From NCBI RefSeq assembly GCF_030704535.1, contig NC_081817.1, forward strand, positions 2,495,001 through 2,559,000: a stretch of 64,000 nucleotides of DNA. The letters are read 5' to 3'. Shown here piece after piece: positions 28,587-44,220 of the stretch (the first letter of the stretch is position 1; every line of letters begins with the position of its first letter). This stretch comes from Vitis vinifera (lineage: Eukaryota; Streptophyta; Magnoliopsida; Vitales; Vitaceae). Position numbers and translations under genes: made by a program. Under the pieces are notes generated by a model. It ran no database searches and was not told the origin of the DNA. It was given only the letters and a program-made list of their open reading frames with translations.

Positions 28587-29391
28587 CAATGAGAAAGAAA
28601 AATAGCAGAGTAGATTTATTACCCTTTCGAATTTGCAACTGTGGGGATCGAAATTGTTTCTTCCGCCATGCTGCTGTTGTTGTTTCTTCACTTTGTTCTG
28701 GTTCTTCTTCCCTATGTTGGACTCACCTCTTTCAGGGACTATGGATGAGACTGAACGGCTTCTATGGGTGGAAGTTCTGCTAATCTGCTGAGAAACTCAC
28801 CTTGATAATAAAATCTTGGGAAAGTTAGGTTTTGGGTCGGCGTGGAAAATATATGATTTTGATAATCCAATTTTACGTATTTCAAAATTAATAATGTAAT
28901 TAGAAAATATTTGGAGAATCATGCACTTTCAGCTTATATGTATTTTAATGCCAAAAATACCCTTCACCTTGCCAGCTAAGCGTTCCACATCTGAAAATTC
29001 AGAAGAGAAAAAACCCTCCGAAAAACCACAAAGCCAATATCTCTCTCATATACTGCTTTTCCCGTTCTCTCCCATTCTCAATCTCAGAAACCCAAAATGC
29101 TGTAAAACCTAACCTCTTTCATTTCTGTAACATTCTCGTCTCCCATTTTGTTGATAAACATCAACAGCCCAAAACCTAACGTTCCCAAAAAAAAAGTTAT
29201 AATGCTGCGGACGAGAAGAATTTATCAGGTGGATGTGTTGGTAAATGAGAAACGAATCAGAAGGAAGAGACACGAGACTACGGGAGGAAACCGGGAAAGG
29301 TGATATCCTTTTTGTTCCCAAATTACTTGATCCAGAAACCCTAATTTCTGAAACGAAGATCAGATCCGGGGAAAATTGGTGATCGGAATCA
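28587..29391. other. Region between F-box B and the V-ATPase fragment
   Basis: It holds the homologue of the family's first exon (basic, Gln-rich KKQQQQHGGRNN, about 28625-28715), probably transcribed as the leader of gene B, followed by AT-rich sequence and the region upstream of the divergent V-ATPase fragment. No further gene is seen. Confidence 0.5.
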
Positions 29392-29742
29392 ATGGTGGGT
29401 GCATCGAGCTCATGGTCTCGCGCACTGGTTCAGATCTCACCTTACACCTTCTCCGCCATCGGCGTTTCCGTCTTGGGTGCCGCTTGGTACTTTCTCTTCC
29501 CTTCCTCCCTTGTAAAATCCACTAAAAGAAAACAACTACTAAAATTTTTGCATTCTTGTCGAACCAGCGGAGGTTTAGGTTAAATTAATACATTATATTT
29601 GTTTTTTTTTTTTTTTTTTTGTTGGATCGTTGTTTTGATGGTTGCGTTATTGCTGCATTTTTAAGGGAATTTATATAACTGGAAGTAGTTTAATTGGTGT
29701 TGCCATCAAAGCTCTTCGGATTACTTCAAAAAATCTGATCAG
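29392..29742 (+). pseudogene. V-ATPase subunit c'' fragment (first two exons)
   Basis: Exon 1 (about 29392-29483) encodes MVGASSSWSRALVQISPYTF followed by SAIGVSVLGAAW. Exon 2 (29666-29742) encodes GIYITGSSLIGVAIKALR and then ITSKNLI. Together they match the N-terminal third of the vacuolar H+-ATPase c'' proteolipid. The join appears one base short of keeping frame, and none of the later exons (FCEAVAIYGV and onward) is visible downstream. It is therefore a partial copy that kept an intron, not a retrocopy. It is the first of several gene fragments in this region. Confidence 0.75.
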
Positions 29743-30839
29743 GTGAGTACTTCAACTTTCTTTCTTTCTTTCTTTTTTTCTCGCTGGTTTTATGGATCAT
29801 TGATGCGGTATTACATGGACTGGCTTATTAATGAGAGGTAACTGACAACTTCCATGTGTAAAAAAAATTGAATTATGCCACCACTTACTAGATTGTCCAG
29901 GCATAGGTTACATGGTCGTAGGATAAGCTGATACGCCTATTTACCATCAATATCAATGAGTGTCAATTCTGAAATCTTACTGAACATACATTTGGACAAA
30001 TCAATATCAATATTTCGGCCAATATTTCAGTATGGTTCATGTTGATATTCTATAATATTATTGGTATTCCTCATTTACTTTGATGAGCTGAAGATTTTTG
30101 TGCTCATTTCCTATGCAATACTTGCTTGTTTTGAGCTTAATTTGAAGACTCATTCAAGATTGATGCTAAATTCACAAAGTTTCGGCACTATAGAATTGTA
30201 ATAGACTTTGTTTTTATTTTTTTTCATTTGGATTACAGCCTGTTTGTTTCTTTGGATTATTCCAGCTACTTCAATGTGTTGGAATTCATTAATATTGAAA
30301 CCCTAGCGTTTTTTAGCGGCCATTTATTCTTTTATTTTTTTTTGTCTCTTGCATTGTAGATATGTGCCTAGTGGAGTGAAGGCTGGTTCTTATTATAAGT
30401 TTTTATGCATCTTTGAAATTCTTGTTTTTCTCTGTCATCCAAGATGGGTACTTGTTGACTGTTTAAGTACATGATGTATTATCATCTGTGGTATGCATCC
30501 TCTCAGAAGGTATAAGGTCTCTGAAAGGAAAAAATAGAGTAATGAAGAATATGCATAAAGCTTCTGGTCATAGCAGTTAAAACATCTATTGAAATAGGTC
30601 CAGAACTATATTTCAAACTATAATTCCCTTTGTACTTCATCTGAAGTTGATGTTAGACAATACAATGCCTGTAATTGGAGTAATAAGAACTTCTTAATTT
30701 CTTTGGTTGTATAGCCCCTAGTTGTGATCTGAAGGGAATATGATCACAAGTTATTATAATCAGTTTCTGATAAAAATTGAGACGTGGACAAAAAAAGTTA
30801 GAAAAATAAATAATAATAATATTAAAGTGGCTGAATACC

Positions 30840-31020
30840 AAAGCAAGCTTAAAGTGGCCGAATACCAAAAATAGCATGAAGAAGAAATAGAGGAAGAGAA
30901 AATTATTAAGAATAAATTGACAAAGTCTACATAAGCTTAAAGTGCCACAAGCTTAAAGTGGTTGAATACCATGCTGAAAAATTGCATGAAGAAGAGATAG
31001 AGGAAGAGAAACAAGAACAA
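30840..31020 (+). repeat. Duplicated coiled-coil-like coding fragment
   Basis: Two related segments (about 30845-30902 and 30951-31012) share GCTTAAAGTGG and GAATACCA and then a GAAGAAGA/GAGATAGAGGAAGAG run. The second reads KLKVVEYHAEKLHEEEIEEE in one frame, charged and coiled-coil-like, so it may come from an exon. I do not recognise the parent gene, and no long open frame surrounds it. Confidence 0.35.
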
Positions 31021-33691
31021 AGCAAACTCCTTCACAGTTTTATCAAATAAACAATCTAGTCTATTTGATGTAGAGCATGTTAACAAGAAATGAGCAAATT
31101 TATTTGTTGGGAATACTTTTTGTGAATAATTGCAAATCCAGGGCTGTGATAAAAGGAATGATGATGGTGCGAGTTTTGGTCCATATAAACAAAAGAGTAT
31201 GGCTATAGCCTGTGCTAGCTAATAATTTGGCAAAACCCCTGTAAGGGTTCCACACATTTGAGGCGTAAATCAGTGTATGAGCTATTGGATTTCAAATCAG
31301 GGTTTGACTTGAAATCATTGGAAAGTGCTTGAAATTGAGAAGATGGTGTCTTTGGTTGTATTTGATTGGGTTCTAAGCATTAGGATTATGGAAAGTGAAT
31401 TAGGAATGCTGATGATTGAAAGGAGTTGAAGAGGTTGTCGTGCAGCCATAGAATGAGGCATGGCAGAAAGAAAGAGGATGAGGAGGGTTTTGAGAACGCA
31501 CCCAGGGTAGTAAAGGGGTGGTAAGAGGTCCAGAGGAAGAAGAGGTGGAAATGTTGTATACATGCCAAGTTCATTTAAGCTATCAGGGAATCAGCCCCTA
31601 GGGCAATAACGACTTTCTTCACCATTGCAGTTAGTGAAGAAAGGATTGTCAATACTTTGTTCACAGTGTTGTTTAGAAGAAGACGATGTAAAAAACCTTG
31701 TTGCTTTGCAATATTGATAGGAAATGGCTTTTTGATGGTCATTCTCACAAACAGTGTCAAATTGTGAGGGCAAAATAATTCTCTTGACAATGATAGAAAT
31801 TAGTAGGAAAAATATCTTTTATAACTAGAAGAGTTATAGCATAGGAAACACATCCTTTATAACTAGAAGAGTTATAGTATATAAAAACTCTCTCCCAAGT
31901 CTATTTGAAGATTCATCATTTGTCTCCGATGGAATAACCAACTATAAATTACATGGGATATGAGATAATGGGGATATAACTATTAGAGCATAGTTAAAAA
32001 ATAATGGAATCAAATCTAAAGATAGTGAGGATCAGATGCAGTTATATTGTTGTAGTTATCCTCTCAGTACTCAGATATATTGCACTTTTTGTTTTTTGCC
32101 TTGTTGGACTCTTGGTTTCCTTGGACTCACATTTTGCAAAGTTATTTATACAACATTGATTTCAATTTTATAAAAAAAGTCATTAATAAAAAAGCCCCCC
32201 CTTCACTTGCTAATGATGGTCAGATATGAATTACCACCAGACTAGACCTCATATGCAGTGAGTAGTGCGGTTATTTGTTCTCCCTTGTGCCAGCCTTGTT
32301 CCCGCATGTTTACTTAGAAATTGATGAAACCTCTCTAATGCTTATGTGAATGTCTCACATTGCCGATGCTTTGTAATTTCACTGCAGGAGAACAGAAAAT
32401 GAATAAACTTCCAGCTATCAAATTGACTAGGTATGCTGCATATTGATTAATTTTATCCCTGGAAATTGAATTCTAATACTTGTAGCAAGATATTTTGGAA
32501 CATTTGAATATGTGAAGTATTTGGAACCTTTAACTAGGGCCCTCTGATCGCTGATATTGTATCTTGCAACTTCAATTGATTAAAACCTGAGTTCATAAAA
32601 GAGGCTTGGATTTGGCAACTTCGGTTGAGTTGGGTTTTAGACAAATGAACTTCATGTTTAGATTGAGCTTGGATTGATTTTCAATCTGATATGACCCACC
32701 AGAATTACACCTTAAATTTTATGCCATCTTATTAGTAGAGTTGTCATTCATTTCCTTAAATCAGTTCCAACTTTTTCTATCAACTGATAAACGAATTGAT
32801 CAAGAATGCCTATCATAAAATAAAAAATAAATAAAAAACAACGAATTAGATACTAATGGTTCCCTATTCTTACAGTATTTTATACTGGTGTAATTGATCC
32901 ATTAATATGTAGTACAACATAATATATTTAAAATATTGAACATGGGAACCTGTCTCAGGTTTTGAGTAACTGGCAATGTTCATAGTTTTTGGAATCTGCT
33001 CACAAATATACCAGATAATAGGAGGATCTACTGTGTCCCATAGAGTGCTACTAGCCTACCACAGTATTCTTTATCAGTTTTTTATATAAATAAGATATTC
33101 AACTGCCAGGATTAATACATCTCAATGGTTAAAATTTTCACTTAATCACTATACTAAGTTTCTGTTTATGTTGCTTTGCTTTCAATCAAAAAGTGGTGTG
33201 CTAAGTTTGCTTATTATCATATTATCATTTGAGCTCTCTCTTTCCCTGTACCCCGTTTCTCATTTATTGGGATGTGAGAGAACAATTTTGTTGACTTCTG
33301 GTCAAATCTGAGTGATATTAACATTCTGATTCCAGTGTTCTTTAGCTTTCAGCAGCATTCTGCTGGAAATTATAGTTGATATAAAGTTGTTTATTGTCTA
33401 ATTGTTTGACCTGTTCTGTTCTCAAATCGGAGAGGCTTGCTAATCCGGGATTTGCAATTCCACTAGTTTTTTTTTTTTTTTTTTTTTTTTGTGTTTATGA
33501 TCAAACGAGCTAATACATTAATCTAATTCCAATTAATTTACTTGAGTGATACTAGTTGTTTCAACATGCAATACATGATAAGTTTTTGGTAAAAAATCTT
33601 TAGTTTTTGTTGACTTTATTGCATAGGTCTTATTTGGTAGATTTCTTTGTACTTTTAAGATAATAACTATTATTTTTTCTTTTATTTGCAG
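31021..33691. other. Intergenic, no whole gene; unidentified Cys-rich frame
   Basis: Mostly AT-rich sequence. A - strand frame at 31591-31773 reads as a Cys-rich segment (YCKATRFF, KQHCEQSIDN, FFTNCNGEESRYC) that could be another captured exon, but I cannot name a family. A T run occurs at 33468-33490. Nothing else is supported. Confidence 0.35.
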
Positions 33692-34208
33692 TGAACAAAA
33701 AGGTTTCAGCTAACAAATTGAAACAACAGGCGGTCAAGGCTTCCTACGAACATGAAAGGCAAAAATATGTTGAAACTTCTCAATCAATACCTTCTTATTC
33801 TTGCCCAAATGGGGGTATTATTTCTTCTCATTATTTTCCTTGTTAATTTGGTTACAATTGAAGTGCATTGCATTAGCATTGAGTCCATAGTTTTGATACT
33901 TATTCCATTGGTTTTGAACTTTGAAGTTTATTTAGACAGTGTAACTTGTCCAAAAGAAAAACAGTGGAAAGTTCAAAATTCTGAACCATGTTTACTTCAT
34001 CCTGGAGATCCTCCTAGAAGACTAATTTTCACCCAAATGATTAGATGTTGTCAAATATTATTTGACTATGTGGCTTATTTCTACAGGTGCGGCCTTATAA
34101 ACTGTGGATTGAAATGGAAAATATTGAGAAAGGGATTGTAGAAATCATTGCTCAGAATAATATAAAATGGCTTGTTATGGGAGCTGCAGCAGATAAATAT
34201 TATTCAAA
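33692..34208 (+). pseudogene. USP-domain (U-box/USP kinase type) gene fragment
   Basis: Two exon-like pieces: 33692-33814 and 34087-34208, with AG acceptors and GT donors. The first reads KVSANKLKQQAVKASYEHER, changes frame after the following QK, then NMLKLLNQYLLILAQMG. The second reads PYKLWIEMENIEKGIVEIIA and then NNIKWLVMGAAADKYYSK. These are the hallmark blocks of the universal stress protein domain in plant U-box/USP proteins. The frame change and the missing start, end, U-box and kinase parts make it a broken partial copy. Confidence 0.75.
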
Positions 34209-35308
34209 GTATTAACCATCTATTACAAGTTCTTATTGTTGACTGCATTGATTTATTTGATATTGTTGTAGAATTACTCGAGGCTTCCACCTTAGGCATT
34301 TGGGATAAAAGTTTTGTTGAATTTAGTGGAATTTATTGAAGCTTCTACAAGAATTATCCAATATTAGTGCACAAGTATTGTTGCTCTGTAGGAGGCCTCT
34401 TGATGTAGCCTAGTCGGTTATAAATTGCTATGAAGATTAACCCAATTTTAAGTCATAAAAGATCAGCTCCTCGTAGTGCTATACTTTTCTTTTCAGCATT
34501 TTAGGAATTAAATTGGCAGACATATCTTTTCAATATATTTCTCAGGCAGTTGATAAAGTTGGGTTATTTCTTTTGTGTTAGAATCAATGTTGCTCTGGCG
34601 CTTCAAAATATGTGATACATGTAGAGGGTTATGGATTGTGAGCTATCAATGGGAGCATCCATCAAAGAAAAGAGGAACACATTCCTAGTATACAGGAAGT
34701 TCCACAGTATACTTTCTTAATTTGTTCCTCTTTTGAATGATATCTCAAAACAAGCAAAGCACTCACATTGCATATGCTATGTTGTTTTAACAAATCATTT
34801 ACCCAAGCTATGAAAAAAAAAAACAAAAGGAAAATTGGATGCTTTGATAATTTAGCCATGTCTTTATATTTGAGGATTAGATGAATTGATACCTAAACAC
34901 ATTGGAGATTGATCAAACTTATGTATCTAATTGAGAAACTTATTGGTGTGAGCTAGTTATTTAATATTTTATAAGTACGTATTCTTTAAAAGAATTTGAA
35001 GACTGTAGCATGTAACAGCATGATTGAGAATGAAAATTTCAGCAAAAGGAAGAAAATGTTTATTTAAAATTAAGTCTCGTGATTTTAACTCAAGGCATTA
35101 GCTTTGGTATGTGCATGTGCAATTAATTATAATTAAGGTATTGTTTTTAGGCTGATAACATTAAAATGCCCTGATAACCTTAAAATGTGCAGATATCAAA
35201 ATAGGTCAAACTTATACCAATTTAATTGATGCATTTGCTTTCAGTTTCTAAATTTACTGATCCAGTCTCATGAAGATTGCAGGAAAATGGTTGAGGTCAA
35301 GTCATTCA

Positions 35309-35419
35309 GAGAAAAAGGTGGAGCCTGAGGCATCTTTTGAAATTTTGACCAACCCAGCGTGGGTGGTTCCTGCTGAGGAGAAGTTCATTAAATTTCTGGA
35401 AGAAAGCAGATATGTCCCA
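35309..35419 (+). pseudogene. 26S proteasome subunit RPN2 (PSMD1) fragment
   Basis: The frame reads EKKVEPEASFEILTNPAW, then VVPAEEKFIKFLEESRYVP. This is the conserved C-terminal segment of the proteasome regulatory subunit RPN2 (usual EPSFEILTNPARVVPAQ). The similarity begins and ends abruptly, and the expected VLLRDLRP continuation is absent. A single captured exon piece. Confidence 0.75.
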
Positions 35420-36249
35420 GGGGAAAAACTCATAAAGAAAGAAAAAAATGTGCATTTGTGTTGAGCTAGTACAACATGAATAGATTTTGTGACTCTTTTG
35501 TATTAGTGAACTATGTTTTGTTCTTCACTTACCTTACCACCCCCTCCCCCACATTTCTCACATGCAAAATAATGTTCTCAAATCTCTCCCTCATTGTAAC
35601 TGTGTAAATGTGGATCTAATTGAAATCGGTCTTGTTTGTTTCAATCCAGTAGCTTGATTTTTCTTCCTGTCTTTTATGATGGGTTATGATGTTGAATGAT
35701 GCTTATATGATAGAGTGTGAAGCAAATCCTTTTGTGTGCACAATTGGGGATAGATAGTTTTCATTGAAAACAAATCTCTACTCTTGAGTGCTTTAAACTT
35801 TTTCATTTCTTTCACTTTGCTGAGAAATTATTGTTTGGGATTCACTTGGTTGTGTGTGTGTCTATTTGGAGAACTGAACATTGGGTACCTCTCTGCAAAG
35901 ATGCTCTGAAATAATTGGAAGACAACAGCTCTAGATGATCTTTTTGGTTTCCAATCACACACCACCACAAGAACAGAATCTCAGATAAGAAATGATGAAC
36001 TTTTGAGCAATTTTTTATTTTGTTCTGGCCAATAGGAATATCTCTGATGGTATTGATAGGGAAAAAAAATAGACACATTTTCCATAGATATAGTTGTTAG
36101 CTTTACATTTCAAATAAAACAGATTCCAAAGCTTATGATATGTCTAAAATTTGAGTTGCTATTGAATATTAAATGGAACTAGTCATACCATTCATATTTT
36201 GTTTCAAATTAACTATTGCTAAGAAGAATTTCCTGAATACACAATCCAA

Positions 36250-37390
36250 GCAATGGGGAAATATTTCTTTAAATTGTCTCTTATCATTCCATATCTATTC
36301 TCAAGGAAGGTTGTGAGTTGCTGTTTAAAAAGAAAAGCTGCATATTTGGCTTCAACTTGTCTCAAGTCATCCAGTCCACCAAGCACCCGACCATTAAGAA
36401 ATGAGAACCCAGCACTTTGTGGAGATGCACGAAGCCCCTAAAAATGTAAGGCAGCAAATGAGAAAATAGAAACATAAACAAAAAAGGAAGCTATATCAAA
36501 TGTCCTGGTTGGTGCACAAGATAAAACAAATCCCATTTCTTAGTTGATACATCCTCCCAAATAAAAAAGCTGATGTTGATTTCCTATTAATTTTCAATCA
36601 TTCTTCTAGTGAAATATCTTGGTCCCATTAAGCAAATTCAATTCAGTTTACCAGGTCCAACAAGGGGATTGACAGTAGTCACTATTTTCAAACATCCAAG
36701 ATATAGAAACCAAGTAAAACAGAGGTCGGTTATACCTCTATTGCTGCACCTATTGTCTGAATGATACGATCAAATACACTGGTTCTTTCAACCTCAAATG
36801 ACCTTCATTGGAGAAGGGATTTGTAATTCAGGCAAGCAGCAATAGGCCTGCCCCCAGAGAATCCTAGATCTTGTGAAATAAACTTGATTAGCAGGTCTTG
36901 GTTTTCCTGCACCAGAAAAAATAATTAGCATGAAGAAAGAGGAAGACTGAAAGAGGATATCCACCTGCTGCTTTTCAATGAGAGATTTCTGGGGCTTTTC
37001 CTCAGATTGAGGTTCCCGTGGAGAAGAAAGGGCAAGACTTGAATCCTGAGACATTTGAAAGATGGTGGGACACAAAATACAATTGTGGATAATAAAACTT
37101 AAAATTGAAAATCAAGAAAATATTATAGATTATATGTGAGCAAAATTTTGGTGGTGGACTTTCTCCCTTCTGGAGTTCCATTAGTTAACATAGGGGACTA
37201 GCTGATCTACAACAACTCTAAACACCCTAATTGATGGACTATATATGTATAATATATACATTTATGAAGAGGGAAAAAATATCTACACTACCCTTAATCG
37301 CTTCTCCAACTGCAATCTCCATGTAAATTCCTCCACCCGTTTTTGTAGCTTGTCCTTAGCTTCTTTAAGGGCCCGTGTTTCTCTTGCAGC
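36250..37390 (-). pseudogene. Myosin XI fragment (coiled coil to dilute domain)
   Basis: At least four exon-like pieces on the - strand with correct splice borders: 37390-37292 ([18 protein letters not shown], coiled coil after the IQ motifs), about 37053-36965 (ending PQKSLIEKQQ), 36906-36736 (ENQDLLIKFISQDLGFSG, then RSFEVERTSVFDRIIQTIG) and 36437 to about 36255 (GFSFLNGRVLGGLDDLRQVE, then YGMIRDNLKK). They run in the order of a plant class XI myosin tail. One piece has an in-frame TGA where the family has Trp (LLHWRSF), many exons between pieces are missing, and the motor domain is absent. A dead, internally deleted partial gene copy. Confidence 0.8.
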
Positions 37391-38451
37391 CTAAAAAACA
37401 TAGACAAAGAATCAACACTAACCTTCATTCCTCACTCACAACGAGTTTCATAACAAATGTGCTCAAATAATAAATTAATATTAAGAAAAGTAAACTTTCA
37501 GCTATACTCATCCCTATACATACCTTTTCAATTATAAAATTGATATCACTTACCCCAAACAAATTTTATTCCCTATGCATATATTACCTGATAGAAATCC
37601 TTTGATATTTCTATTTTTGTTTTAGGACTTTATTGTTAGTGTGATATATTGTTAGTAAAATTGGTATTTCTATTCAAAATCATATTACGATATTTATGAA
37701 ATAGTATAATTGGTACTATTCAAAAGAAGAAAATGAAAATAAGAATATTTTGCTCTGGTGAAAATGGTTACCTTATTTGAATTATAATTTCATATCGTTT
37801 AGTCAAGAATAAAAGTCATCACTTGCAAAAAGGGAAAATATTTTCTATGGGTAAAAAGACTATCTTATCCTCTGGAAGTACTTTTGAGATATTAAGATTT
37901 AAACCCATCATATGGGGAGGAAAGATAAGCCAAAAAAATTTAAATATTAAATTTAATTTAACTAATTGATAAAATAAAAATATATAACTCATTTAAAGGA
38001 TCTTATTTTAATTTTACCTTAATTTAATATCACACTGAATTATTCATATAAAAGAAATTTGAAGAATAAAAATGCAAATTAAAAGTTTTTAGTTCCTAAA
38101 AACCACTTATTATGTTTTACCTTAAATGAAAAAAAAATCCCATCTACTTAACAAATTAAATGGGTTTTGATCAAAATTAAGTGATAAGTAGTATAAAATT
38201 TATGTCATAAGATAAAATTCATGTTATCAAACATTATTATAAAATGAAATCTATGGATTTTTCAATTTTTAATAAGTAATTGTTTTATTAAATACCCTCT
38301 TAATTAATATTTTATATGACGTTAAAAATATTTGTGGGCAATATGTATTCAAGAAAAGAATGATATGCAACTATTGTTTAAATTATATAATGTAGTGGAA
38401 CGAGCTTCAATGCACAGTCATAATAGGAAAAAATATTAAACAAAATTTAGC
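37391..38451. other. AT-rich spacer, no gene seen
   Basis: Very AT-rich, with no open frame or repeat family that I can support. It separates the myosin fragment from the minisatellite. Confidence 0.5.
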
Positions 38452-41215
38452 ACCTAAGGGCCCTTAAGGTAGTACCTAAGGAACAGTAGCAAAAAACCAT
38501 TAGTGGACCACATGAGGACTCAAGAGAAGCACATAATGGCATGGTTTAAGGGTCACAAAGGAAGACCCGAGGCTTGGGAGAGGTTGAGTTTAAGTTTAGC
38601 TAAGGTAGTACCTCAAGGCCACTAAGGTAGTACCTCAAGGCCATTAAGGTAGTACCTAAGGAACAGTAGCAAAAAACCATTGGTGGACCACTTGAGGACT
38701 CAAGAGAAGCACATAATAGCATGGTCTAAGGGTCACAAAGGAAGACCCGAGGCTTGGGAGAGGTTGAGTTCAAGTTTACCTAAGGTAATACCTAGGGTCC
38801 CTTAAGGTAGTACCTTAAGGCCACTAAGATAGTACCTCAAGGCCATTAAGGTAGTACCTAAGGAACAATAGCAAAAAACCATTGGTGGACCACATAATGA
38901 CTCAAGAGAAGCACATAATGGCATGGTCTAAGGGTCACAAAGGAAGACCTGAGGCTTGGGAGAGGTTGAGTTCAAGTTTAGCTAAGGTAGTACCTAGAGT
39001 CCCTTAAGATAGTACCTCAAGGCCACTAAGGTAGTACTTCAAGGCCATTAAGGTAGTACCTAAGGAACAGTAGCAAAAAACCATTGGTGGACCACATGAG
39101 AACTCAAGAAAAGCACATAATGGCATGGTCTAAGGGTCACAAAAGAAGACCCGAGGCTTGGGAGAGGTTGAGTTCAAGTTTAGCTAAGGTAGTACCTAGG
39201 GTCCCTTAAGGTAGTACCTCAAGGCCACTAAGGTAGTACCTAAGGAACAGTAGCAAAAAACCATTGGTGGACCACATGAGAACTCAAGAGAAGAACATAA
39301 TGGCATGGTCTAAGGGTCATAAAGGAAGACCCGAGGCTTGGGAGAGGTTGAGTTCAAGTTTACCTAAGGTAGTACCTCAAGGCCACTAAGGTAGTACCTC
39401 AAGGCCATTAAGGTAGTACCTAAAGAACAGTAGCAAAAAACCATTGGTGGACCACATAATGACTCAAGAGAAGCACATAATGACATGGTCTAAGGGTCAC
39501 AAAGGAAGACTCGAGGCTTGGGAGAGGTTGAATTCAAGTTTAGCTAAGGTAGTACCTAGGGTCCCTTAAGGTAGTACCTCAAGGTCACTAAGGTAGTACC
39601 TCAAGGCCATTAAGGTAGTACCTAAGGAACAGTAGCAAAAAACCATTAGTGAACCACATAAGGACTCAAGAGAAGCACATAATGGCATGGTCTAAGGGTC
39701 ACAAAGGAAGACCCGAGGCTTGGGAGAGGTTGAGTTCAAGTTTAGCTAAGGTAGTACCTAGGATCCCTTAAGGTAGTACCTCAAGGCCACTAAGGTAGTA
39801 CCTCAAGGCCATTAAGGTAGTACCTAAGGAACAGTAGCAAAAAACCATTGGTGGACCACATGAGGACTCAAGAGAAGCACATAATGGCATGGTCTAAGGG
39901 TCACAAAGGAAGACCCGAGGCTTGGGAATGGTTGAGTTCAAGTTTAGCTAAGGTAGTACCTAGGATCCCTTAAGGTAGTACCTCAAGGCCACTAAGGTAG
40001 TATCTCAATGCCATTAAGGACAAGAATCATAGAAAGGTTTGGCGGGCAGCTCCTCTCTGTTTATTTTGGACAATTTGGAAGGAAAGAAATAGGATAGTCT
40101 TCGATAACGAGGCTTTGTCGACTCAAAGATTGAAAAACTCTTTTGTTTGTAATCTCTTATCTTGGGCTAATTCTTCTATAGTTGTAAGCCCTTTATCTTT
40201 GTTTAACTTTGTGGATTGGTTGGGTTCTTGTTGAGGGCCGGTGAGTGCTTGTGTTTTTGTTGCTTGTTTTAGGTGTCTCCTGTATACTCCCTGTATGCCC
40301 TGGGTTGCCTTTCAAGCTCCCTTTCTCTAATATATCTTTGTGCTTTTGCCTATCAAAAAAAAAAAAATGACATTAAGGTAGTACCTAAGGAACAATAGCA
40401 GAAAACCATTGGTGGATCACTTGAGGACTCAAGAGAAGCACATAATAGCATGGTCTAAGGGTCACAAAGGAAGACCCGAGGCTTGGGAGAGGTTGAGTTC
40501 AAGTTTAGGTAAGGTAGTACCTAGGGTCCCTTAAGGTAGTACCTCAAGGCCACTAAGGTAGTACCTAAGGAACAGTAGCAAAAAACCATTGGTGGACCAC
40601 ATGAGAACTCAAGAGAAGCACATAATGGCATGGTCTAAGGGTCGCAAAGGAAGACCCGAGGCTTAGGAGAGGTTGAGTTCAAGTTTAGCTAAGGTAGTAC
40701 CTAGGATCCCTTAAGGTAGTACCTCAAGGCCACTAAGGTAGTACCTCAAGGCCATTAAGGTAGTACCTAAGGAACAGTAGCAAAAAACCATTGGTGGACC
40801 ACTTGAGGACTCAAGAGAAGCACATAATGGCATGGTCTAAGGGTCACAAAGGAAGACCCAAGGCTTGGGAGAGGTTGAGTTCAAGTTTAGCTAAGGTAGT
40901 ACTTAGGGTCCCTTAAGGTAGTACCTCAAGGCCACTAAGGTAGTACCTAAAGGCCATTAAGGTAGTACCTAAGGAACAGTTGCAAAAAACCATTGGTGGA
41001 CCACTTGAGGACTCAAGAGAAGCACATAATGGCATGGTTTAAGGGTCATAAAGGAAGACCCAAGGCTTGGGAGAGGTTAGTTCAAGTTTAGGTAAGGTAG
41101 TACCTAGGGTCCCTTAAGGTAGTACCTTAAGGTAGTACCTCAAGGCCACTAAGGTAGTACCTCAAGGCCATTAAGGTAGTACCTAAAGGCCATTAAGGTA
41201 GTACCTATGGTATAG
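38452..41215. repeat. Minisatellite of 202/180-bp units rich in AGGTAGTACCT
   Basis: About twelve units. The landmark GAACAGTAGC (or GAACAATAGC) recurs at about 38481, 38661, 38862, 39065, 39245, 39425, 39627, 39829, 40390, 40570, 40772 and 40974. Spacings are 180 or 201-203 bp, apart from one gap of about 561 bp that holds a LINE. Each unit has a unique part (ending in GGCTTGGGAGAGGTTGAG) and a stack of subrepeats of about 22 bp built on AAGGTAGTACCTCAAGGCCA. The 180-bp form lacks one subrepeat. AGGTAGTACCT is a palindrome around its middle base. No coding potential. Confidence 0.95.
40020..40366 (+). mobile_element. 5'-truncated L1 LINE inside the minisatellite
   Basis: It encodes the last part of an L1 ORF2 (LCLFWTIWKERNR, then FVDWLGSC and a stop), then a 3' UTR with TCTCCTGTATACTCCCTG and a poly-A tract at 40355-40367. 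A 12-bp target duplication, ATGCCATTAAGG (40008-40019) and ATGACATTAAGG (about 40367-40378), has one mismatch; its sequence belongs to the minisatellite unit. A typical target-primed insertion, truncated at its 5' end. Confidence 0.9.
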
Positions 41216-41229
41216 TCCCTAAGAAGCGA

Positions 41230-42200
41230 TACTACTTCCCAAAATTAGCTTTTGAAATATTATTATTGTGCCAAAACTTGAGGTGGGTCATTGGATGAAT
41301 GGTTCTATAATTGAGAAGTGCTCACCAAAATCATCAAATCAATTTCAGCCCCATATGTAAAAGTGAGGCTTTATTTATCTACTTTCCAAAAAATTCACGG
41401 AAATGTTCATGTTGTGCCAAAATTTGGAAGTGGGCCTTTTAATGGATGGCCATGTATTAGAGAAATGGTCAACAAAATGATCTAATCTAAGACCTTTTTT
41501 TCCCAAAAATACAGTCAAAAGTTTACATGGATCATTTCATCAGTAGCCATATAGTTAAGAAATGCTCACCAAATCATTAATCAGATTCAAACCCATGTGT
41601 AAAAATGAGACATTCTCCCAAAAACACATTCTCAAATTTACTTGTTATGCCAAAACTTCACCTAGGTCATAGGAAGAATGGGCTAAAAATGCAGAAATGT
41701 TCATCAAAATCCTCAAACCCACACCCAAAAGATAGAATTTTCTCTCAAAATTTGAACTAGGATATTAGATGAATGGTGACCAAAATTATCGACCGAATTT
41801 GTACCAATGTGTAAAAATGAGATATTTTACCAAAACGGATCCGAAAATGTACTTGTAGTGCCAACAAAAATCAAAAGTGGGTCATTTGGATATGAATGGT
41901 CAGCAAAATGCTATAAAAATTTCACATCTCAGTAAACTTCAGAAGGAGTTGAATTCTGAAATAGATCCCATAGCACAGAACCATATGGGACTGCAAGCCC
42001 TGGTTAATCTAATTCCACGTATTACTACTATGTCCTCTACCCTTATGAGCTATTTTTATTCATATTCAGAGTGAGTGTACAAGGTGATCAGTGAGGAGGG
42101 AAAACTCAGTAATATGGGGTGAACAGGCGATGCTTTTCATACATGGTTAGGTCAGATCCAAATCCATATGTAAAATGACAGCCCTTTGCCCAAAAATCAA
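41230..42200. repeat. Degenerate tandem repeats of about 105-150 bp
   Basis: After the minisatellite, a second family recurs about six times (near 41259, 41413, 41520, 41645, 41750 and 41858). Each copy has a GTGCCAAAACTT-like start, GGGTCATTGGATGAATGG, AAATGCTCACCAAAATC and CCCATATGTAAAAATGAG. Copies are much more diverged than in the neighbouring array. No coding content seen. Confidence 0.6.
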
Positions 42201-43042
42201 ACAAACACCTAAGGTAAAACCCACTGAACGGAGAACCACATACCTCATGCCATGTTTCCTCTGATCGGGTTCTTTTCGGTTCAGATTTGAGTGCTGATTA
42301 CATGGCCAATTTTGGAGACCCGTGGCTGCTTACATGGAGACCGTGGTGGCTGCTGACAAGGAGAACAAAAGGGAAATTTTGGAATAACTTTTCCAAACAG
42401 TAATTAGTGCACAAAAAAAATAATATTCTGATCATTAATGGACAAAGCCCGTATTCCAGGTTCTATGGGTTTCATTCCCATATAACCTTCAAATGGGCTT
42501 CCTAAAACACAACTTCCCCCTTAATTTATCAATATATGACGAGAAAGGTCCAGTCCTACAAATTTTCTACCGTACACTGAAAATTCTTTCTCAATAGGCC
42601 CACAAATTTTCTGATTTCCCAGTAGAAATATAGGATATTTTTAAGCACCACAACCTTAGTGATAGCATTTAAGATCTACAATTTTTTTGGTACACTTAAA
42701 ATGATTCTAACATCATTTCAAGTGCTGAAAGAAGCAATGAACTTATTCTATATTATAAATAATTGAATTTATTCCCAACATGTTTCTCCACAAACAAGTT
42801 CTTCCTTTTTACAATTCCAACACATAAATTTAACACAACCAAAACAGCATCCATTTCGACAAAACCCTTATTAGAATGAACCATCAAATCTTAATTTACA
42901 AACCCATCTCAACAATTAGATCCATCCAAGAAAACAGAGAAGTATAATTTTCACATAACATCCAAAGATGAAATAGATATCTACAATTGAATTTAATACG
43001 AGCAAACAAATAAAAAAAAAATTAAAAGAAATAATACAAAAC
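42201..43042. other. Spacer without recognisable gene
   Basis: AT-rich, apart from a short G-rich part near 42310-42370. It should hold the later exons of the SelT-like gene if that were whole, but none is visible. Confidence 0.45.
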
Positions 43043-43367
43043 CTGTAGGAACAAGAGGAACATAAATTAATATTGACGGTGTTGCCGAAGCCAATACCTC
43101 CAATACCACTCTCTTTCTGCAATTCAAAAAAGCAATCGAAAATTAATCAAACACCCATTTACATAAATACGGAGAATAGAAAAACGGGTACCAAGGAGAA
43201 CAGACCTATGTGGGGAAATCTAGAGGAGCCGATTGGGGTTTGGGTTGGGGTTGCTGGTGGTGATGATGCGGCGGTGGCTTTGGAGGCAATGGCGTGAAAA
43301 GATTTATGATGTCTGAGAAGAAGAGAAACAGAGGTAACCCTACCAGAAGAAACTGAGCTTTATCCAT
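43043..43367 (-). pseudogene. SelT-like protein fragment (first two exons)
   Basis: Exon 1 (43367-43206) reads MDKAQFLLVGLPLFLFFSDI, then a Pro/His-rich stretch ending LDFPT. Exon 2 (43116-43043) reads KESGIGGIGFGNTVNINLCS, then SCSYR. This matches the start of the plant SelT-like (thioredoxin-fold, ER) protein as I recall it. The last exon-1 codon is TAG where the family has a Gln codon (CAG), so the frame stops at the splice junction, and no later exon follows. The plausible leader upstream (43368-43490) suggests the promoter end was copied too. A truncated copy, probably dead. Confidence 0.75.
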
Positions 43368-43619
43368 TGGAAAAGAAGGCTGGGTGATCGAGCGAGTGAG
43401 ACTCTGAATTTTTTTGGTTTTGTAGGCCTTCTGATGTGGACGCTGAAGTGGCTGAAGAGAGAGGGCAATTTCGGAATGAAATAACACCTCACAGCAGAGT
43501 GCATGAAATCCCTAATTTTTTTGTCATCAGTGTACGTATTTTTTTTTGTGTAAAGTTGGGTTTCGAAAATGTTATTATTTTGGGGTGGGCAGCCCAAGCA
43601 TAACTTCAGAAGCAAGAAA

Positions 43620-44220
43620 TATGATTTGACATGGTCAATGAATGCAAAAGTCCTTGCAATGACGTCATTGGTGTTGAAAATTGATGCTCAACCAATCTTA
43701 CTAGTGTGAATGGGTTGAAATCTTTTGGTATGGACTGTATACTTTTTGCTAGTTTTATTTTCATCATTCATAAGAACCTACGTACTTATTAGTTCAATAA
43801 TCTACTGTACGTGCACACAAGAAAGTTCCATCTGCAAAAGAGGTGACATTGGTGCTGGAAGCAGGTGGTAATACATTTGCTCTTCTGAGTAATTTCAGTA
43901 TGTAGATTTGCAGCTTAGTTTTCTCCATTTGTAAGTCCAAGTTAAAAGGGGTGTCGAGATTTCCAAGGATACATTTTGACATCCAAAGAAAACCGACATT
44001 TGCCTGATCAGATACATTTTGTCTGTTTCATCCCCAAGGGACATTAAAAGAGTTGGATGGAAGCTTGGAAATGAAGAAAGAAAGTTTGATTTTTTCTATT
44101 GTAAGATTCCAATTTTTCTATTGCTGAAGTTTTCTGTTTGTCAGTTTGGAAGGCAGCTTTCCCTTGTTCACTGCTGGGAACATTTGAGAACATTTGAAAT
44201 AAAGATTGTTTGCTAAGGAG
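43620..44220. repeat. Segment duplicated at 53370-53930
   Basis: It shares long stretches with 53370-53930: GGTATGGACTGTATACTTTT, ACAAGAAAGTTCCAT and the related - strand frames MSKCILGNLDTPFNLDL (43982) and MSKCIFGNLNTPLNLDL (53772). In both places it lies just downstream of an F-box family last exon (C and H), so it is part of the duplicated block. Whether the shared frame is a gene relic is unclear. Confidence 0.65.

What the first reader, a model, noticed from the sequence alone, without database searches (positions are those of the whole stretch)
29392..43367. Fragments of five unrelated host genes packed into 14 kb
Pieces of V-ATPase c'', a USP/U-box protein, proteasome RPN2, myosin XI and a SelT-like protein lie between F-box B and F-box C. 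Most keep exon-intron borders, so they were copied as DNA rather than from mRNA, and none is whole. Three lie on + and two on -. Two further coding-like scraps (30840-31020 and 31591-31773) may add to the list. Capture by a Helitron or Pack-type DNA transposon, or repeated filler-DNA repair, would explain this; I could not find element ends.
Basis: partly seen in the sequence, partly recalled or inferred. Interest (0 to 1): 0.75.

Follow-up and report, generated by a model that had tools for sequence, protein, structure and literature searches.

The report
Jumping gene carrying six gene scraps
The packed gene fragments are the cargo of one cut-and-paste DNA transposon (a Pack-MULE) that copied pieces of at least six plant genes, introns included, and then spread within the same genome; this is a known kind of event, but an unusually readable record of how such cargo is stitched together.

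Summary
Window 28818-43606 is one transposon of the Mutator-like, Pack-MULE kind. Its ends are inverted repeats (63% alike over about 200 bp). Two other loci (C3, C17) carry it colinear from end to end, with insertions and deletions; a third (C7) ends at 42519. Four related two-ended elements have perfect 9-bp target duplications and C3 has 8 of 9; the window copy and C17 have none.

The only V-ATPase c'' gene found is distantly alike.

In 7 of 7 donor comparisons (5 donors) the window is closer to C3 and C17 than to the donor, so the composite was assembled before it moved. Eight of eleven internal joins carry 3-9 bp of microhomology (sum 36 bp; simulated mean 8.3, maximum 24), which favours template switching. 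The SelT-like piece instead abuts a second transposon end.

The kind is known; the capture record is the interest. No transposase was found in the window copy, and the partner that moves it is unknown.

The parts
28818..43606 (.). whole composite Pack-MULE (about 14.8 kb); 5' end GGGAAAGTT...; the 3' end lacks the last bases of the family end ...AACTTTCCC
   Evidence: homology with copies at C3 and C17 begins and ends about here
28818..29162 (+). 5' terminal inverted repeat region, shared with many family members
   Evidence: first 200 bp are 63% identical to the reversed 3' end over 196 aligned bases, score 72 against a shuffle maximum of 28
29392..29743 (+). V-ATPase subunit c'' exon 1 (about 29392-29487) and exon 2 (about 29666-29743) with the intron between; about six residues of exon 1 missing
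   Evidence: PDB E 9.6e-23; Pfam ATP-synt_C; relative at C4 is 83% and 77% alike in exons only
29744..32311 (+). rest of module A, holding both 'coding-like scraps'; followed in the C19 relative by the next V-ATPase c'' exon
33444..35303 (+). USP-like (U-box kinase type, name recalled) gene piece with introns; donor-like locus C16:22577957-22579874
35300..35420 (+). 121 bp of one exon of RPN2 (26S proteasome); donor C7:21703748-21703868, 96%
35434..36154 (+). 3' flank of an ELF4-like gene (up to 36084 alike to C11:1103677-1104605), non-coding; sixth donor
36146..37488 (-). myosin XI tail piece, patched from five stretches of a C9 gene (four internal deletions)
37489..38416 (.). two further joined stretches (37489-37595, also at C12, C8 and C4; 37592-38416, also at C10:9103655), nature unknown
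38448..41206 (+). tandem repeat array, units of about 180-202 bp
40020..40370 (+). insert with poly-A tail inside the array, probably a truncated LINE (name recalled)
   Evidence: C3 alignment jumps from 40019 to 40371; the C17 array is shorter here and does not tell
41172..42520 (+). end of a second MULE (D), terminus ...AACTTCCCC, which is the 3' end of the C7:17.39 Mb copy and a terminus at many other loci
42521..43411 (-). SelT-like (name recalled) gene piece with introns; donor C8:8891816-8892713, 96%, where no other part of the element matches in the 3,898 bases fetched
43409..43606 (-). 3' terminal inverted repeat (outer end)

Best explanation
Window 28818-43606 is a non-autonomous Mutator-like element of the Pack-MULE kind that was assembled stepwise from at least six host-gene pieces and at least two MULEs, then transposed as one unit. 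Shown: its ends, its copies, the family's 9-bp duplications, donor-like loci, excess microhomology at joins. Inferred: (1) the inner pieces (V-ATPase, USP-like, RPN2, ELF4 flank, patched myosin) were joined mostly by microhomology-guided template switching during DNA repair or replication; (2) the SelT-like piece was caught by passing beyond a MULE end (42519/42520) into the flanking gene and then switching, at TTT, to another MULE end, which gave a new outer terminus; (3) a transposase from another MULE moved the whole.
For: Colinear copies at C3 and C17 with homology stopping at the ends; a fourth, C7, matches 98% over 32150-38440, has the 5' end and stops at 42519. Target duplications: 9/9 in 4 of 4 two-ended family members examined, 8/9 at C3, 8/9 in an A-run at C7 (weak). 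Window ends are inverted repeats, 124 of 196 identical, score 72 against 300 shuffles with a maximum of 28. The window resembles C3 and C17 more than the donor in 7 of 7 comparisons, 5 donors. Microhomology at 11 joins sums to 36 bp by rule against a simulated mean of 8.3 and maximum of 24 in 20,000. SelT-like donor C8 contiguous with introns. The SelT-like piece has the same left border in six copies and the same right border in five, C14 in part, but is joined to two different MULE ends.
Against: The window and C17 copies have no target duplication (2/9 each) and the window copy lacks its last 3' bases. No transposase with these ends was found, so Mutator membership rests on duplication length and inverted repeats. 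Three of eleven joins have no microhomology by the rule (RPN2|ELF4 judged by eye because of an indel). One 4-bp case is an A-run, and one 9-bp case has a mismatch in the window. Donors are present-day relatives, not the captured molecules. The V-ATPase donor is only distantly alike. C7 was read only at its ends.
Confidence: 0.93

Rival explanations
1. Helitron capture: a rolling-circle transposon picked up the gene pieces.
For: Helitrons also carry several gene pieces with introns (recalled; maize numbers in PMC13317346 section 7).
Against: Long inverted-repeat ends and 9-bp target duplications in family members; Helitrons have neither (recalled). Helitron end motifs were not searched for.
Confidence: 0.02
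2. No mobile unit: independent insertions, or segmental duplication plus filler repair, heaped up between two F-box genes.
For: The window copy has no target duplication; the flanking cluster is rich in tandem duplication.
Against: The same order of pieces occurs on C3 and C17, with similarity ending at 28818 and 43606.
Confidence: 0.03
3. All pieces were caught by the Pack-CACTA route: neighbouring elements inserted close together, lost their inner ends and moved as a hybrid holding the DNA between them.
For: The SelT-like piece does lie between two MULE ends. The route is told in PMC13317346 section 7 (read).
Against: No MULE end was seen between the inner gene pieces, most joins show microhomology, and the myosin piece is patched from five stretches of one gene.
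Confidence: 0.2
4. The composite makes a new chimeric gene that is kept by selection.
For: Several copies exist; rice Pack-MULEs can give chimeric transcripts (PMC13317346 section 7).
Against: V-ATPase exon 2 is mostly deleted at C3 and C17; the USP-like exon is frameshifted in the window relative to C16, by eye; C17 lacks 36606-37360. No expression data here.
Confidence: 0.04

Closest known systems
Pack-MULE (Mutator-like elements carrying gene pieces; rice, Arabidopsis, grapevine)
   Same: Inverted-repeat ends, 9-bp duplications in the family, intron-bearing gene pieces from other chromosomes, several copies, no own transposase found
   Different: At least six donors and two MULE modules in one element; diverged inverted repeats (63%); a donor piece patched from five stretches
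Grapevine MULE transduplications of Benjak et al. 2008 (PMC2528002; abstract and sections 8 and 10 read)
   Same: Likely the same species; MULEs with 9-bp duplications holding exons and introns of a cellulose-synthase gene, and ULP domains
   Different: None of the present donor genes is named in the parts I read; whether this family is one of their Mutavine families could not be tested
Pack-TIRs and the FoSTeST model of PMC8277862 (passages read)
   Same: Microhomology at capture borders and multicopy spread after assembly
   Different: Shown there in animals; the authors say its application to plant Pack-MULEs is worth exploring
Pack-CACTA hybrid-end capture (as told in PMC13317346 section 7)
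   Same: SelT-like piece lies between two transposon ends
   Different: Other superfamily; here only one piece fits that route

Membership tests
Mutator-like element (MULE) | 9-11 bp target site duplication | tested here: met
   met for the family: 9/9 in 4 of 4 two-ended members, 8/9 at C3; not in the window copy or C17
Mutator-like element (MULE) | long terminal inverted repeats | tested here: met
   about 200 bp, 63% in the window, 65% at C3
Mutator-like element (MULE) | mobilised by a MURA-type transposase | tested here: inconclusive
   PF10551 scan scored 150 of 791 candidates; one lies inside a family member (C9:11225978), in a separately nested MULE with other ends
Pack-MULE | host gene pieces between MULE ends, introns kept | tested here: met
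   SelT-like donor with introns, 96%; myosin, USP-like, RPN2, ELF4-flank donor loci
Pack-MULE | non-autonomous (no transposase inside) | tested here: met
   the 10 longest of 107 stop-to-stop frames (82-139 aa) match no Pfam family at E 0.01; none of the 150 scored PF10551 places lies in the window
Helitron | no inverted repeats and no target duplication | tested here: not met
   both are present in the family
Helitron | TC...CTRR ends with a hairpin | not tested
   no search made

The most novel reading that the evidence does not exclude
One plant element records two capture routes: microhomology-guided template switching for the inner pieces, and passage beyond a transposon end for the outer one. 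Modules were also swapped between MULE lineages at their shared end sequence: the same SelT-like piece sits beside two different MULE ends (window, C3, C17 against C11 twice and C14). MULE ends would then be recombination handles as well as transposase sites, which would bear directly on the plant question left open in PMC8277862.
Probability: 0.45. Interest if true: 0.6.

Novelty: new member of a known kind. Interest (0 to 1): 0.4.

Why it matters
How Pack-MULEs pick up gene pieces is still debated. This family keeps donor-like loci, possible intermediates (C7 ending at 42519; C10 with USP-like, RPN2 and ELF4 pieces; C11 and C14 with myosin and SelT-like pieces) and final composites in one genome, so single joins can be read base by base. 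It is also a warning for gene annotation: several protein matches, no whole gene.

Tried and rejected
Helitron, heaped insertions and new-gene readings: see the rivals. Scraps as extra genes: no Pfam match, one frame each. C11:1239119 as USP-like donor: dropped, because it lies beside the tandem-repeat unit and looks like a repeat copy. C4 V-ATPase as direct donor: exons alike (77-83%), introns not, so left open. Autonomous partner: by eye, PF10551 places (150 scored of 791 candidates) within 20 kb of the matches make four pairs, about one expected by a rough reckoning; not informative. Names SelT and USP by Pfam, PDB, Rdx and Usp scans: not confirmed. Empty-site test with the F-box paralogues: clear similarity to the closest paralogues stops at 28797 and resumes at 43682 (a weak 71% match spans 43609-43684), so no target duplication can be rebuilt. 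Microhomology: a first reading by eye gave sum 39 with 9 of 11 joins; a recount by rule (ten joins) gave 36 with 8 of 11, taking the eleventh, RPN2|ELF4, as 0 by eye. The recount changed B|C from 3 to 0, SelT|end from 5 to 3, USP|RPN2 from 4 to 5 and C2|C3 from 3 to 4. Left out of the simulation: the duplicate A|B row with another right donor, the D|SelT join (a transposon end, 0-1 bp), and joins inside 32306-33443 and 37596-42519, not tested. A weak Pfam line for a toxin subunit on the 48-aa C11 piece (E 0.074, below cut-off) was taken as chance and not followed.

Full report
What is there. The window is G000:C13:2495001-2559000 of a 495.6 Mb genome with 21 contigs; size and contig number suggest grapevine, which no call confirms. 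A search with the V-ATPase piece gave 24 matches, so the stretch is repeated. Searches with the two outer parts gave 52 and 44 matches. The end alignment puts the 5' end at 28818; homology with other loci stops at 43606 on the other side. Two of these loci, C3:12.22-12.24 Mb and C17:5.976-5.988 Mb, are colinear with the window from end to end, apart from insertions and deletions: a 6-kb insert at C3, loss of 36606-37360 and a shorter tandem array at C17, an altered outermost 5' end at C17, loss of most of V-ATPase exon 2 in both, and a 350-bp insert at 40020-40370 that C3 lacks. C7:17.39-17.42 Mb has the 5' end, matches 98% over 32150-38440, and stops at 42519; I read it only at its ends.

Ends. 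The family end is GGGAAAGTT.... The two window ends are inverted repeats, 124 of 196 aligned bases identical; alignment score 72 against a mean of 7 and a maximum of 28 in 300 shuffles. Four two-ended relatives on C19, C13, C18 and C7:25.5 Mb all have perfect 9-bp target duplications. The C3 composite has 8 of 9 and the C7 composite 8 of 9 in an A-run. C17 and the window have none (2 of 9 each). The window copy lacks the last bases of its 3' end, so that side has been damaged or has diverged; the clear F-box similarity resumes only at 43682.

Cargo. Module A (28818-32311): V-ATPase c'' exons. In the C19 relative the next exon, matching residues 69-128 of the same chain at 5.4e-28, follows the place where the window's module stops. 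USP-like piece 33444-35303: locus C16 carries the same exons in open frames plus a further one. RPN2: 121 bp inside one exon of a gene at C7:21.70 Mb. ELF4-like 3' flank 35434-36084: the C11:1.10 Mb locus codes for an Elf4 domain, E 3.8e-40, and the captured part starts just after that frame. Myosin XI 36146-37488: five stretches of a C9 gene; window frame 1.6e-22 and donor exons 2e-96 to Myosin-17. SelT-like 42521-43411: a contiguous block of C8:8.89 Mb, introns kept; no other part of the element matches in the 3,898 bases fetched there. The names USP and SelT are recalled; no call confirms them. The 10 longest of 107 stop-to-stop frames match no Pfam family at E 0.01.

One assembly, then movement. 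In 7 of 7 comparisons (USP-like and myosin counted twice, so 5 donors; gaps left out) the window is closer to C3 and C17 (96.6-99.3%) than to the donor (92.0-96.7%). Against C3 one small piece without a close donor (V-ATPase exon block, 93.4%) is lower than the rest. USP-like, RPN2 and ELF4 pieces also sit together at C10:19.05 Mb, 91.4-94.3%, and C11 twice and C14 carry myosin and SelT-like pieces, without the others in the stretches seen. So modules seem to have existed before the composite.

How the pieces were joined. For 11 joins I had a relative of both donors. By a fixed rule the bases shared by both donors at the best break are 3, 5, 0, 9, 4, 3, 5, 0, 4 and 3 for ten joins, and 0 by eye for RPN2|ELF4, where an indel blocks the rule: sum 36, 8 of 11 joins with 3 or more. 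Random joins of the same loci give a mean of 8.3 and a maximum of 24 in 20,000. My first reading by eye had given 39. The 4-bp myosin case is an A-run, and the 9-bp case has one mismatch in the window. Template switching at microhomology fits. The D|SelT join is different: a MULE end, found as a terminus at many loci, directly abuts the SelT-like gene. The same SelT base abuts another MULE end in C11 twice and C14; the far border is shared by window, C3, C17 and both C11 copies, and in part by C14. In the SelT piece 19 sites separate all six copies from the C8 donor, 7 mark the C11/C14 group and 1 the window group. This reads as one capture followed by an exchange near the ends, which are 85-88% alike over 40 bases. 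That last step is inference; the FastTree does not settle it.

Mover. A PF10551 scan scored 150 of 791 candidates; one lies in a family member, C9:11225978, inside a nested MULE whose own ends differ. The partner transposase is therefore unknown.

Literature. Benjak 2008 (PMC2528002; abstract and sections 8 and 10 read) reports grapevine MULEs with 9-bp duplications and captured genes. PMC8277862 (passages) reports microhomology at 67.6% of animal Pack-TIRs and leaves plants open. PMC13317346 (passages and section 7) reviews capture routes. PMC8903248 (one passage) does not hold the words Vitis or grape in its main text. The searches showed no title describing this composite; one search showed 15 of 34 papers, 10 of 11, 8 of 9.

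Verdict. Real, mobile in the past, and of a known kind; of moderate interest as a readable capture record.

Noticed in passing
40020-40370: Insert with poly-A tail and a reverse-transcriptase-like frame (recalled) inside the tandem array, absent at C3; probably a truncated LINE.
   Followed up: partly
38448-41206: Tandem array with 180-202 bp units, each with a similar 50-codon open frame; another array sits in the C19 relative (L078 4511-6321).
   Followed up: partly
L079 from 2804 (C11:12.8 Mb): A related element on C11 also carries a piece that looks like NPC1 (Pfam E 0.0042, below the cut-off), so this family may have caught further genes.
   Followed up: no
C9:11222547-11228781: A MULE with a transposase match in a 458-aa open frame is nested in a family member near the window equivalent of 29612, in a T-run.
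   Followed up: partly
   Followed up: no
32306-32581: A 276-bp block with the same borders recurs on C18, C12 and C5 (two places); its source is unknown.
   Followed up: no
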